DNA of 37,107 nt from an uncultured Bacilli bacterium. Its GTDB lineage: Bacteria > Bacillota_I > Bacilli_A > RF39 > UBA660. Location of the stretch: assembly GCA_944363705.1 (NCBI GenBank), contig CALVUY010000006.1:1-37107 (forward strand), given 5' to 3'. A program made the position numbers and the translations under genes. Below, piece after piece: positions 428-3,045 of the stretch; within the stretch, counting starts at the first letter, position 1; each line of letters begins with the position of its first letter. The notes beneath the pieces were generated by a model. It was given only the letters and a program-made list of their open reading frames with translations. It ran no database searches and was not told the DNA's origin.

Positions 428-1942
428 TCACTCCTTTACATTATCTATCTTTCTTAAACCATCTATAGTTAATAAATATAAACTATCAACTACTTCTTCT
501 ATATATTTTCTATCATGTGAAACACTTATTATTGTACCACTAAACTCTCTCAAAACCTTTCTAATGACAGGATTAGATAAAGGACTTACATTTCTAGTAG
601 GTTCATCTAATACCAAAACATTACACTTATCAAGAACTAATTTCATTAAAAACAACTTAGCTTTCGTTCCATTACTTAAATCTTTTATCTTTCCTGTCAT
701 TTCTTCTCTTGTAAATTTCATATTTCCTAAATACATCCTCGCTCTAGTTATATCATCTTTATAATTACTTGGAGCGATAAATTCTAAAACATATTCATAA
801 TTATTTAAAACTTCATCATAGTTTTGAGGCATATAACCCACTTTAATATCTTCTCTTAACTTTAACTGTTCATAAATAATTTTAATTAAAGTAGATTTCC
901 CTATCCCATTTTTACCTACAATACATAAATGAGTATTACCTACTACTTCTAATTTAATATTTCTAGATAAAACTTTATTATCAATCTTTAACTCTTTTAA
1001 ATCTAAATTAAGAACTACTTTTGTCTTTGGAACTTGCACATCTTCAAAAAAGAAATTAATACCTTCTTCTACATCAGGTAATTCAGTAAGAGTAGTATCA
1101 TCTAACTTCCTCTCTTGTGATTTTAAAGAATGCATCTTCTTTTTTAATAATCTTGCCCCGTGAGGATCACTTCTTGAAATAGTATTTTGTTGATACTCTA
1201 CTTTTTGCATAACTTGTCTTAATTTTTCTTGTTTCTTAATAAAATTTCTTTTCTCATTTTTTGCTACTTGTCTTTGTTTATCTATCATTCTAAGTCTTTT
1301 AGAAACATAAGTATCATAATCAATCTTTAAAAGAGTATATCTACAATCTGTTTTACCTTTTATCTGTTCTAAATGTAAAATCATATTAGCAGTATTAGAA
1401 AGTAGACTCTCATCGTGAGAAACATAAACAATAGGTTTTGAGGTACTATTAATAAATTTCTCTAACCACTCTAAAGTTTCTATATCTAAATCATTAGTAG
1501 GCTCATCTAAAAATAAAATATCAAATTCTTCTAGTAATAATTTTAATATATTTACTTTTACTTTCTCTCCACCTGATAAAGACATTATTCTTTGCTCTAA
1601 TATTTCATCTTCTAAATTAAATAGTTCTAAATACTTATAAAGTTCACTTATTTTATTATAATAGTCTTCTTCACAACTAAATAGATAATCATATACTTTC
1701 TTATTTAAATTATCTTCACTAATTACTTGTTCTAAATATCCAACTCTATTCCCTTTTAAATTAATAGTTCCTTCTATCTCTCCATAATCACACATAGAAA
1801 GAATAGTTTTAAGTAAAGTAGATTTACCATTACCTTCTTCACCAATAATCGCTAACTTATCTCCTTTATTTAAAGTTAAAGATAAGTCTTTAATTATATA
1901 TCTACCATTTACTAATATAGTTAAGTTTCTTATTTCTAACAT
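428..1942 (-). CDS. ABC-F family ATPase, antibiotic-resistance/ribosome-protection type
   Basis: Soluble protein of 504 residues with two ATP-binding domains and no membrane segments, as in ABC-F proteins, which bind the ribosomal E site and clear stalled or drug-bound ribosomes. Domain 1 has Walker A GEEGNGKST (residues 34-42), signature LSGGEK (about 122) and Walker B LDEPTNDLD. A long basic linker follows at about 210-290. Domain 2 has GKNGIGKST (about 345), an altered signature LSNGTK, and LDEPTRNVSP where LDEPTNHLD is usual. The ATG at 1940-1942 is chosen because AGAAAGGAAGG lies just upstream; the frame stays open for 17 more codons, which belong to the leader. Two leader peptides and alternative hairpins upstream argue for drug-inducible resistance of the Vga/Lsa/Msr kind rather than a housekeeping EttA. 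The substrate drug cannot be read from the sequence. Confidence 0.88.
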   Translation of the reverse strand: MLEIRNLTILVNGRYIIKDLSLTLNKGDKLAIIGEEGNGKSTLLKTILSMCDYGEIEGTINLKGNRVGYLEQVISEDNLNKKVYDYLFSCEEDYYNKISELYKYLELFNLEDEILEQRIMSLSGGEKVKVNILKLLLEEFDILFLDEPTNDLDIETLEWLEKFINSTSKPIVYVSHDESLLSNTANMILHLEQIKGKTDCRYTLLKIDYDTYVSKRLRMIDKQRQVAKNEKRNFIKKQEKLRQVMQKVEYQQNTISRSDPHGARLLKKKMHSLKSQERKLDDTTLTELPDVEEGINFFFEDVQVPKTKVVLNLDLKELKIDNKVLSRNIKLEVVGNTHLCIVGKNGIGKSTLIKIIYEQLKLREDIKVGYMPQNYDEVLNNYEYVLEFIAPSNYKDDITRARMYLGNMKFTREEMTGKIKDLSNGTKAKLFLMKLVLDKCNVLVLDEPTRNVSPLSNPVIRKVLREFSGTIISVSHDRKYIEEVVDSLYLLTIDGLRKIDNVKE

Positions 1943-1978
1943 TATGCCTTCCTTTCTGGCATAATCAAAGTTTATGCC
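1941..1978 (-). promoter_or_regulatory. Alternative hairpins (translational attenuator) in front of the ABC-F gene
   Basis: Three segments can pair in two exclusive ways. In mRNA order they are segment 1 GGCATAA (1978-1972), segment 2 ATTATGCC (1965-1958) and segment 3 GGCATAAT (1948-1941). 1:2 gives a 7-bp stem with a 7-nt loop. 2:3 gives a perfect 8-bp stem whose 9-nt loop holds the ABC-F Shine-Dalgarno (AGAAAGGAA) and whose stem includes the first two bases of its ATG. No U-tract follows, so control would act on translation rather than termination. Confidence 0.7.
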
Positions 1979-1982
1979 TAAC

Positions 1983-2003
1983 TTATTTAGCAATTATTCT
2001 CAA
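1983..2003 (-). CDS. Leader peptide 2 (MRIIAK) of the ABC-F gene
   Basis: Six-codon frame TTG-AGA-ATA-ATT-GCT-AAA followed by TAA. A near-perfect Shine-Dalgarno, GGAGGTGA (2009-2016), sits 5 nt before the TTG. It ends 5 nt before pairing segment 1 of the attenuator, so a ribosome on its last codons would cover that segment. Short leaders of this kind are standard in erm, msr and related inducible resistance genes. Seen: Shine-Dalgarno, frame and position. Inferred: that it is translated and regulatory. Confidence 0.6.
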   Translation of the reverse strand: MRIIAK

Positions 2004-2008
2004 TTTTC

Positions 2009-2062
2009 TCACCTCCGAATTACTGTTTTAATATCTTTATCAGGCAATATTAATTTTTTCAT
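2009..2062 (-). CDS. Leader peptide 1 (17 aa) of the ABC-F gene
   Basis: Frame ATG to TGA encoding MKKLILPDKDIKTVIRR, preceded by AAAGG 6 nt upstream. Its last codons (CGG AGG TGA) form the Shine-Dalgarno of leader peptide 2, so the two are interlocked: a ribosome paused on its C-terminal IRR codons would block initiation of the second leader. A TGATAAAAT extended -10 at 2085-2093 would start the transcript about 15 nt before this ATG. Confidence 0.55.
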   Translation of the reverse strand: MKKLILPDKDIKTVIRR

Positions 2063-2084
2063 AAAAAGCCTTTCCATTTCTTCT

Positions 2085-2093
2085 ATTTTATCA
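2085..2093 (-). promoter_or_regulatory. Probable promoter of the leader-ABC-F-ogt transcript
   Basis: Extended -10 TGATAAAAT on the minus strand. The -35 is weak: TTGTGT lies 19 nt upstream, longer than ideal. Predicted start is near 2078. Confidence 0.4.
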
Positions 2094-2156: not shown

Positions 2157-2190
2157 AAAAGATTAGAGTTTACTTTCTAATCTTACTTTT
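2157..2190. terminator. Possible bidirectional terminator between the SDR and ABC-F genes
   Basis: GATTAGA (2161-2167) pairs with TCTAATC (2176-2182) around an 8-nt loop. It is followed by T-rich sequence on both strands (TTTTAATTTT on minus, TTACTTTTTT on plus). It would end the dehydrogenase transcript. Confidence 0.5.
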
Positions 2191-2295
2191 TTCACTGTCA
2201 TTTATAGAGCTGACTTCACTCACTTTTTTAGCTACCATTTATAGAGCTGGCTTCACTCACTTTTTTAATTGCCATTTGAGGCTGGCTTCACCTAC
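2187..2295. repeat. Three tandem copies of a ~37-bp repeat
   Basis: Copies lie at 2187-2223, 2224-2260 and 2261-2295. Each begins with six T, contains CATTT then AGAGCTGGC or a close variant, and ends TTCACTCAC (TTCACCTAC in the third). Units are 37, 37 and 35 bp, directly abutting with no spacers. The length is not a multiple of three. Together with the terminator above and an AACATAA/TTATGTT inverted repeat (2333-2354), this is all that is visible in the 2063-2361 gap. Confidence 0.75.
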
Positions 2296-2361
2296 TTTTT
2301 TATTACTACTATTAGAATTAATATATATATCTAACATAACTTAACAATTATGTTTTTAAGA

Positions 2362-3045
2362 TTAATTATTAATATTTTTTATTCCCACTTCTGGTATCAT
2401 TACATCAGAAGGTGTATCAATTATAAATTTAATTAATCTAGCAACTTCTTTTGTATCAAGACCATTATCCATATTTTTTTGAATATTCATTTTCTTAAAC
2501 ATATTTGTTTTCATCATACCTGGCATAACATTAGTCACTCTAATTCCATATTTTGCAACTTCATCCTGTAACGACTTTGAGAAGCCAGTTACTCCCCACT
2601 TTGTAGCATTATACACAACTCTTTCAGCTTTATGATTTATTCCTGCCTGTGAATTAATATTGATTATTAATCCTTCTTTATTATTCTTCATAATTGGAAT
2701 CACTGCTTTAGAACAATTAATAACCCCAAGTAAATTAACATCAACAACTGAATTGATTCTACCACTATCATTTAACTCTAATTCTTCTTGAATCCAAAGT
2801 CCAGCATTATTAATTAATACATCTATTCTTCCAAAATTATCTATAATTTTCTTAATACTTTTTTCTACTAATTTATAATTACTCACATCACAAACTTCAT
2901 AATTACAGTTATTACTATTAGCAACCTCAATTAATTTTTGTTCATTAGTTGCTAAAATTATTACATCATTTTCTTGAGAAAGCGATTCAGTTAATGTTCT
3001 TCCTAAACCATCACTTCCACCTGTTATTAATATTACTTTTCCCAT
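2362..3045 (-). CDS. Short-chain dehydrogenase/reductase (SDR)
   Basis: NAD(P)-dependent oxidoreductase of 227 residues, within the classical SDR size range though slightly short. It shows the cofactor motif TGGSDGLG (residues 8-15), NNAG (about 79-82), the catalytic Ser in INSQAG, and YNATK, which gives the Tyr and Lys of the active site. The substrate is not predictable. The start is supported by GAGGAGG a few bases upstream. A TGATATAAT extended -10 lies at 3161-3169, so the 5' UTR would be about 110 nt. It stands alone, with a terminator-like hairpin and tandem repeats after it. Confidence 0.85.
   Translation of the reverse strand: MGKVILITGGSDGLGRTLTESLSQENDVIILATNEQKLIEVANSNNCNYEVCDVSNYKLVEKSIKKIIDNFGRIDVLINNAGLWIQEELELNDSGRINSVVDVNLLGVINCSKAVIPIMKNNKEGLIININSQAGINHKAERVVYNATKWGVTGFSKSLQDEVAKYGIRVTNVMPGMMKTNMFKKMNIQKNMDNGLDTKEVARLIKFIIDTPSDVMIPEVGIKNINN

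What the first reader, a model, noticed from the sequence alone, without database searches (positions are those of the whole stretch)
1941..2093. Two interlocked leader peptides and a three-segment switch before an ABC-F gene
Leader 1 (17 aa) ends in the Shine-Dalgarno of leader 2 (MRIIAK), which ends just before segment 1 of a 1:2 versus 2:3 RNA switch. Pairing 2:3 closes the ABC-F start codon. Model (inference): a drug-stalled ribosome on leader 1 blocks leader 2, letting 1:2 form and opening ABC-F; free translation of leader 2 covers segment 1 and closes it. A relay of two peptides would be an unusual variant of erm/msr-type attenuation.
Basis: partly seen in the sequence, partly recalled or inferred. 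Interest (0 to 1): 0.7.

Follow-up and report, generated by a model that had tools for sequence, protein, structure and literature searches.

The report
Six-codon leader controlling ABC-F gene

Summary
The sequence is as described: on the minus strand a 17-codon frame (leader 1), then TTG-RIIAK (leader 2), then GGCATAA / TTATGCC / GGCATAA before the ABC-F start. Relatives separate the real from the accidental. Leader 2 plus the three segments form a conserved element: 65 distinct copies, about 55 of 386 genomes of the family, every confident match before an ortholog of the same ABC-F gene, no Rfam match. The stop codon of leader 2 lies 0-5 nt before segment 1 in 63 of 65 copies, while leader length varies in whole codons (3-9). 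Leader 1 occurs in 1 of 65 copies, the window itself, and is broken or absent in its closest relatives: the two-peptide relay is not supported. Best model: a ribosome finishing leader 2 covers segment 1, so 2:3 forms and closes the ABC-F start; a ribosome arrested at codons 1-4 leaves 1:2 free to form and opens it. Folding supports this across the family, but not for the window's own copy at equilibrium. It is a new variant of the known short-uORF attenuators of resistance ABC-Fs (nearest: C. difficile cplR, uORF MRI), apparently purely translational, without a terminator. Drug response is untested.

The parts
428..1942 (-). ABC-F gene (504 aa), the controlled gene; divergent member of the ribosomal protection-like ABC-F group
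   Evidence: Two ABC_tran domains; NF000355 301.8 bits, below its cut-off of 380; ATG 1942 is the start conserved in relatives
1983..2003 (-). Leader 2: TTG AGA ATA ATT GCT AAA TAA, (M)RIIAK, the regulatory short reading frame
   Evidence: Short frame with a stop 0-5 nt before S1 in 63 of 65 distinct elements; Arg at codon 2 in 54
2009..2016 (-). Shine-Dalgarno of leader 2 (GGAGGTGA)
   Evidence: Nearly invariant in relatives
1972..1978 (-). Segment 1 (GGCATAA), starts 4 nt after the leader 2 stop
1958..1964 (-). Segment 2 (TTATGCC), pairs with segment 1 or segment 3
1942..1948 (-). Segment 3 (GGCATAA), overlaps the ABC-F start; 2:3 closes it
1947..1955 (-). Shine-Dalgarno of the ABC-F gene (AAAGGAAGG), in the loop and first pairs of 2:3
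   Evidence: Sequence; GGAGG in most relatives
2009..2062 (-). Leader 1 (MKKLILPDKDIKTVIRR): chance reading frame, not part of the conserved element
   Evidence: Found in 1 of 65 elements; broken or absent in close relatives
2040..2046 (-). Stretch TGCCTGA that can pair with segment 1 in the window's genus only; role doubtful
   Evidence: no excess complementarity across the family
2085..2093 (-). Candidate extended -10 element TGATAAAAT (inferred); another candidate TTTAAA-17-TATAAT ends at 2115
   Evidence: Sequence, kept in most of the genus; promoter scan

Best explanation
A ribosome-operated, purely translational attenuator with one leader peptide (leader 2) and three RNA segments. Without drug, ribosomes load on the strong leader 2 site, read its six codons and reach the stop; from codon 5 on they cover segment 1, so segment 2 pairs with segment 3 and closes the ABC-F ribosome-binding site and start. 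When a drug that stops ribosomes at initiation or on the first peptide bonds holds a ribosome on codons 1-4, segment 1 stays free, pairs with segment 2, and segment 3 with the ABC-F start is released. The ABC-F protein would then relieve drug-bound ribosomes and so end its own induction. Shown here: conservation, geometry, mutually exclusive pairing, and the effect of ribosome position in folding calculations for the family as a whole. Inferred: that drugs are the signal, which drugs, and that the ABC-F protein is protective.
For: (a) Conserved element in 65 distinct copies and about 55 of 386 family genomes (59 listed at E<=0.01; three of those have only a weak match without an ABC-F behind it, and one, G344, is a relic), every confident match in front of an ortholog of the same ABC-F. 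(b) Leader length varies from 3 to 9 codons, with 14 changes on the ABC-F tree, while the stop stays 0-5 nt before S1 in 63 of 65 copies: the fixed relation is stop codon to segment 1, as needed if the finishing ribosome must cover S1. (c) With the P site on codons 1-4 the cost of opening the ABC-F start is 7.2-7.9 kcal/mol (medians of six-codon copies); on codon 5 and later it is 10.3-10.9; over all 65 copies start versus stop differs by a median of 2.7, 49 of 65 positive, p about 2e-8. (d) 1:2 and 2:3 are nearly equal in stability (medians -8.1 and -8.8), as a switch requires. (e) In one lineage (L155, L157) all three segments changed together, GGTATA/TATACC/GGTATA. (f) No T run follows either hairpin, so no intrinsic terminator. 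(g) Known attenuators of this design respond to retapamulin and lincomycin, which arrest initiating ribosomes (PMC9226507, PMC10201436).
Against: The segments hardly vary, so covariation is thin: one compensatory lineage per helix. In the window's own copy equilibrium folding keeps 2:3 even with S1 free (opening cost 11.0 with the ribosome at the leader start, 10.3 at the stop), so opening there would have to rely on 1:2 forming first during transcription; L155 and L157 also do not show the shift. In tested relatives (cplR, vmlR, msrD) loss of the leader start codon abolishes induction, whereas this model predicts intermediate or raised basal expression. One orthologous gene (L165) keeps a leader but lacks the three segments.
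Confidence: 0.68

Rival explanations
1. Four-segment attenuator as proposed for cplR and classically for erm: an upstream stretch holds segment 1 when no ribosome is present, so a stalled ribosome is actively needed to free it.
For: In the window's genus the stretch 2046-2040 pairs with S1 with probability 0.99 when no ribosome is present. In cplR and vmlR the uORF start codon is needed for induction (PMC10201436, PMC9226507).
Against: No excess complementarity to S1 upstream of the leader over 65 elements (mean score 10.7 versus 10.4 in shuffles; 6% at p<=0.05). The stretch is weakened within the genus (L037).
Confidence: 0.17
2. Two-peptide relay: drug stalling on leader 1 blocks leader 2.
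For: The frame is there, with a Shine-Dalgarno-like GGAAAGG before it, in the window only. Two-leader systems exist for ermB and ermA (PMC8274638).
Against: Absent in 64 of 65 elements and broken in the closest relatives.
Confidence: 0.03
3. The GGCATAA/TTATGCC repeats are half-sites of a DNA-binding repressor, and the RNA pairing is a by-product.
For: The sequence is nearly invariant, loop included, with few compensatory changes, as in an operator.
Against: Does not explain the tie of an in-frame stop codon to S1, the overlap of S3 with Shine-Dalgarno and ATG, or the effect of ribosome position. The distance S2-S3 varies.
Confidence: 0.07
4. A general sensor of initiation rate or starvation, unrelated to drugs, with the same switch mechanics.
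For: Folding predicts that an untranslated leader leaves the gene about half open (1:2 mean 0.46, 2:3 mean 0.54). The drug link rests on the gene family only.
Against: Every confident match precedes this one ABC-F gene, and comparable leaders of resistance ABC-Fs are drug-induced.
Confidence: 0.05

Closest known systems
cplR attenuator of Clostridioides difficile (uORF MRI; CplR consensus MR[I/M]), PMC10201436
   Same: Very short uORF beginning Met-Arg before a ribosome-protection ABC-F gene; alternative RNA structures; Shine-Dalgarno of the ABC-F closed in the uninduced state; the translational part alone suffices for regulation there.
   Different: cplR also has an intrinsic terminator and a 5' hairpin over the uORF, and its uORF start codon is needed for expression. 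Here there is no terminator and no conserved 5' segment, usually six codons, and the stop codon is tied to segment 1. The protein is not a CplR by the NCBIfam cut-off (218 versus 780 bits).
vmlR attenuator of Bacillus subtilis (uORF MIN), PMC9226507
   Same: Tripeptide-scale uORF, arrest of initiating ribosomes by lincosamides and pleuromutilins as the signal, ABC-F target.
   Different: vmlR works mainly by transcription attenuation with anti-antiterminator, antiterminator and terminator; here only translation.
msrD leader (MYLIFM), PMC10314930
   Same: Six-codon leader before an ABC-F gene.
   Different: MsrDL stalls at its stop codon with macrolides and prevents a terminator; a ribosome held at the stop codon here would cover S1 and close the gene.
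ermC, ermB and ermA leaders (ermB and ermA with two leaders, PMC8274638)
   Same: Alternative hairpins close or open the start of a resistance gene.
   Different: Longer peptides with drug- and sequence-specific stalling, the stalled ribosome covering a segment inside the leader (own knowledge for ermC). Here the covered segment lies just after the leader stop and only one leader is conserved.
trp-type amino-acid attenuators (own knowledge)
   Same: Ribosome position on a short leader, early arrest versus stop codon, decides between two hairpins that share an arm.
   Different: No codon run for an amino acid, no first segment, no terminator, acts on translation start.

Membership tests
Short-uORF attenuators of resistance ABC-F genes (cplR/vmlR kind) | Conserved very short uORF with Shine-Dalgarno upstream of an ABC-F gene | tested here: met
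   65 distinct elements, Arg at codon 2 in 54
Short-uORF attenuators of resistance ABC-F genes (cplR/vmlR kind) | Two mutually exclusive RNA structures between uORF and gene, one closing the Shine-Dalgarno or start | tested here: met
   S1:S2 and S2:S3 share an arm and are kept in relatives
Short-uORF attenuators of resistance ABC-F genes (cplR/vmlR kind) | Intrinsic terminator in the leader (transcription attenuation) | tested here: not met
   No T run follows either hairpin on the sense strand; the scan found a terminator-like site only on the other strand
Short-uORF attenuators of resistance ABC-F genes (cplR/vmlR kind) | Induction by pleuromutilins or lincosamides, and uORF start codon needed for induction | not testable with these tools
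   Needs reporter assays
CplR protein family (NF043038) | Score above the NCBIfam cut-off of 780 bits | tested here: not met
   218.3 bits
Ribosomal protection-like ABC-F family (NF000355) | Score above the cut-off of 380 bits | tested here: not met
   301.8 bits, best of all models but below the cut-off
ABC-F proteins | Two ABC domains in one chain joined by a charged linker, no membrane part | tested here: met
   Two PF00005 stretches; best solved relatives are ABC-F factors
erm/msr drug-stalled leader peptides | A conserved stalling motif such as RLR or a drug-specific peptide | tested here: not met
   Only Met-Arg at the start is largely kept; codons 3-6 vary widely
Two-leader attenuators (ermA/ermB) | Two conserved leader frames | tested here: not met
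   Leader 1 in 1 of 65
Any Rfam family | Match above gathering score | tested here: not met
   None over the leader, also in the sensitive scan

The most novel reading that the evidence does not exclude
An attenuator of inverted logic compared with the tested ABC-F leaders: completing the leader is what represses, so the gene opens both when a drug arrests ribosomes on codons 1-4 and when the leader is not translated at all. The peptide sequence then hardly matters; the element reads ribosome position and senses any early-acting translation inhibitor.
Probability: 0.35. Interest if true: 0.6.

Novelty: new variant of a known kind. Interest (0 to 1): 0.47.

Why it matters
It adds an RNA element that matches no Rfam family, with 65 distinct copies, to the short list of ABC-F gene attenuators, in gut bacteria known mostly from metagenomes. 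Its minimal layout (one short frame, three 7-nt segments, no terminator) makes a clean test of how much an attenuator needs: only ribosome position, or also the peptide. The largely conserved Met-Arg start, shared with cplR, bears on the question raised in PMC10201436 of why these uORFs keep specific amino acids if lincosamides and pleuromutilins act with little sequence preference.

Tried and rejected
Relay through leader 1: rejected on conservation. Conserved fourth segment upstream of leader 2: no excess complementarity (its positive controls ran on only 6 sequences because of a length filter). Intrinsic terminator: none on the sense strand. Known Rfam RNA: none. N-terminally extended ABC-F from TTG 1993: that frame is open only because the switch sequence is conserved; relatives start at the ATG. 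The same element before other genes: four weak model hits (L168-L171, E 0.001-0.003) have no ABC-F behind them and do not read as the element, so they are taken as chance; the own genome has one strong hit. L105/L181, an ABC-F 43% identical with a short frame and hairpins of another layout (E 3e-4, 0.001), was left out of the counts. Accessibility averaged over single bases was not informative and was replaced by the opening cost of the whole start region. A search-pattern error gives a gap of -7 for L042, L047, L059 and L114, where the sequence shows 4; only L158 really has its stop inside S1, and L145 overlaps it by 1. The table also reads the element of L145 as MRNYALS. The promoter scan of relatives was only slightly above shuffles.

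Full report
WHAT IS THERE. The feature lies on the minus strand between a short-chain dehydrogenase gene (2362-3045) and an ABC-F gene (428-1942), which is followed by an ogt-type DNA repair gene. Read 5' to 3' there is a 17-codon frame (2062-2009), a Shine-Dalgarno GGAGGTGA in which that frame stops, a six-codon frame TTG-AGA-ATA-ATT-GCT-AAA-TAA (2003-1983), then GGCATAA (S1, 1978-1972), TTATGCC (S2, 1964-1958) and GGCATAA (S3, 1948-1942), S3 running into the ABC-F ATG. S1:S2 and S2:S3 cannot form together. No shuffle out of 20,000 of the local sequence gives the same exact pattern.

THE PROTEIN. It has two ABC domains and a charged linker. The best general model is 'ribosomal protection-like ABC-F' (301.8 bits, cut-off 380); it falls far short of the named Vga, CplR, Msr, Sal, Lsa and OptrA models, and the plasmid-borne relatives listed over most of its length are only about 23-30% identical. 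It is a divergent ABC-F whose drug spectrum, if any, is unknown. It is accessory: 20 of 100 relatives carry a match at E <= 1e-60.

RELATIVES. The genome belongs to a family of mostly uncultured gut Bacilli (close records are labelled Candidatus Onthousia and uncultured Tenericutes or Bacilli). Upstream regions of the orthologs show the same layout: GAGGTG, a short frame beginning ATG-AGA, its stop, a few bases, then GGCATAAACTTTGATTATGCC, an A/G-rich stretch and GGAGGCATAATATG. A covariance model built from 31 of these found the element in 59 of 386 genomes of the family and 42 of 150 genera. Four weak hits have no ABC-F behind them (L168-L171) and are taken as chance; that leaves 56 genomes, one of them with a relic (L166). 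Among 395 genomes of the class, confident hits lie in the same family, with one clear exception (G683, E 7e-16, ABC-F 73% identical). The own genome has one copy. Nothing in Rfam matches.

LEADER 2 IS A REAL READING FRAME. In 65 distinct elements the frame has 3 to 9 codons (43 have six). Codon 2 is Arg in 54, spelled AGA, CGA or CGC; other residues vary. The stop (TAA 60, TAG 3, TGA 2) ends 0-5 nt before S1 in 63 of 65; in the other two it overlaps S1 (L145, L158) (with the correction given under 'tried and rejected'). On a tree of 58 ABC-F proteins leader length needs 14 changes, always with start and stop in frame. What evolution holds fixed is the distance from stop codon to S1, not from start codon to S1.

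LEADER 1 IS NOT. In the closest relatives the region aligns base by base: four (L031, L032, L033, L036) read ATGAAAGTACAATAA (MKVQ-stop) where the window lacks about ten bases, L034 has ATG-GAG-AAG-TAA, L035 has a different upstream sequence, and L037 has no matching frame. Over the 65 elements a frame that ends in the Shine-Dalgarno TGA and has both a start and a Shine-Dalgarno of its own occurs once, in the window. In many relatives the best promoter-like -10 lies 22-49 nt before leader 2 (motif matches only, barely above shuffles). The relay is therefore not supported.

HOW IT MOST LIKELY WORKS. A ribosome covers about 16 nt beyond the first base of its P-site codon (the 30S toeprint in PMC9226507 is at that position). 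With everything up to that edge made unavailable, the median cost of opening the ABC-F start region in the six-codon copies is 7.7, 7.4, 7.2 and 7.9 kcal/mol with the P site on codons 1-4, and 10.9, 10.6, 10.4 and 10.3 on positions 5-8. Over all 65 copies the step from leader start to leader stop is +2.7 kcal/mol (median; 49 of 65 positive; p about 2e-8). So a ribosome that finishes the leader closes the gene, and one held on the first codons leaves it open. The shortest copy (L167, MRI-stop) would work only with arrest at the start codon, since S1 begins 17 nt after it. That drugs are the signal here, and that the protein protects, is inference.

WEAK POINTS. The three segments hardly vary, so base-pair covariation is sparse (one compensatory lineage per helix; all three segments together in L155/L157). 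For the window's own copy the calculation does not show the step (11.0 versus 10.3 kcal/mol; its 2:3 hairpin is 0.9 kcal/mol stronger than 1:2 and stays the minimum even with S1 free), so there 1:2 would have to win by forming first. In its genus an upstream stretch (2046-2040) can also hold S1, but it is weakened within the genus (L037) and there is no such excess across the family. The tested examples cplR, vmlR and msrD lose induction when the uORF start is destroyed; the three-segment model predicts otherwise, and this is the sharpest test.

COMPARISON. It works like the short-uORF attenuators of resistance ABC-F genes and most resembles cplR (uORF MRI), but lacks the terminator and the conserved 5' hairpin and ties the leader stop to segment 1. 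It differs from msrD, where the ribosome stalls at the stop codon, and from erm leaders, where a peptide motif is sensed. Two-leader systems exist (ermA, ermB; PMC8274638), but this is not one. I rate it a new variant of a known kind.

Noticed in passing
window 2185-2302: 3.2 tandem copies of a 37-nt unit (ACTTTTTTAACTGCCATTTATAGAGCTGGCTTCACTC) between the dehydrogenase gene and the ABC-F leader.
   Followed up: no
L166 95-378 (G344): A decayed copy of the element runs directly into the last 74 residues of the ABC-F: the gene appears lost by an internal deletion that left the leader as a scar.
   Followed up: partly
L165 2001-2079, minus strand (G200): An ortholog (69% identical) keeps an MR leader (MRIMKQEKL) but the GGCATAA segments are gone; the leader tail CTTTG can pair with CAAAG at the ABC-F Shine-Dalgarno, a possible two-segment version.
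   Followed up: partly
window 428-1942: The second ATPase domain reads LDEPTRNVSPLSNPVI where other ABC-F proteins read DQPTNHLD or similar.
   Followed up: no
L083, L084, L087: More distant Clostridia orthologs have terminator-like hairpins with T runs before the ABC-F, suggesting transcription attenuation in place of this translational element (by eye).
   Followed up: no
L097, L098, L101: Distant relatives (about 43% identical ABC-F) carry the bare frame ATGAGAATCTAA (MRI), the same peptide as C. difficile cplR.
   Followed up: no
L114, L153: Complete element in front of ABC-F genes whose frame ends after 75 and 25 codons, consistent with decay or sequence error.
   Followed up: no
all copies, S1 to S2 including the loop: The loop ACTTTGA and the segments themselves are nearly invariant in sequence, more than pairing alone requires; the reason is unknown.
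   Followed up: no
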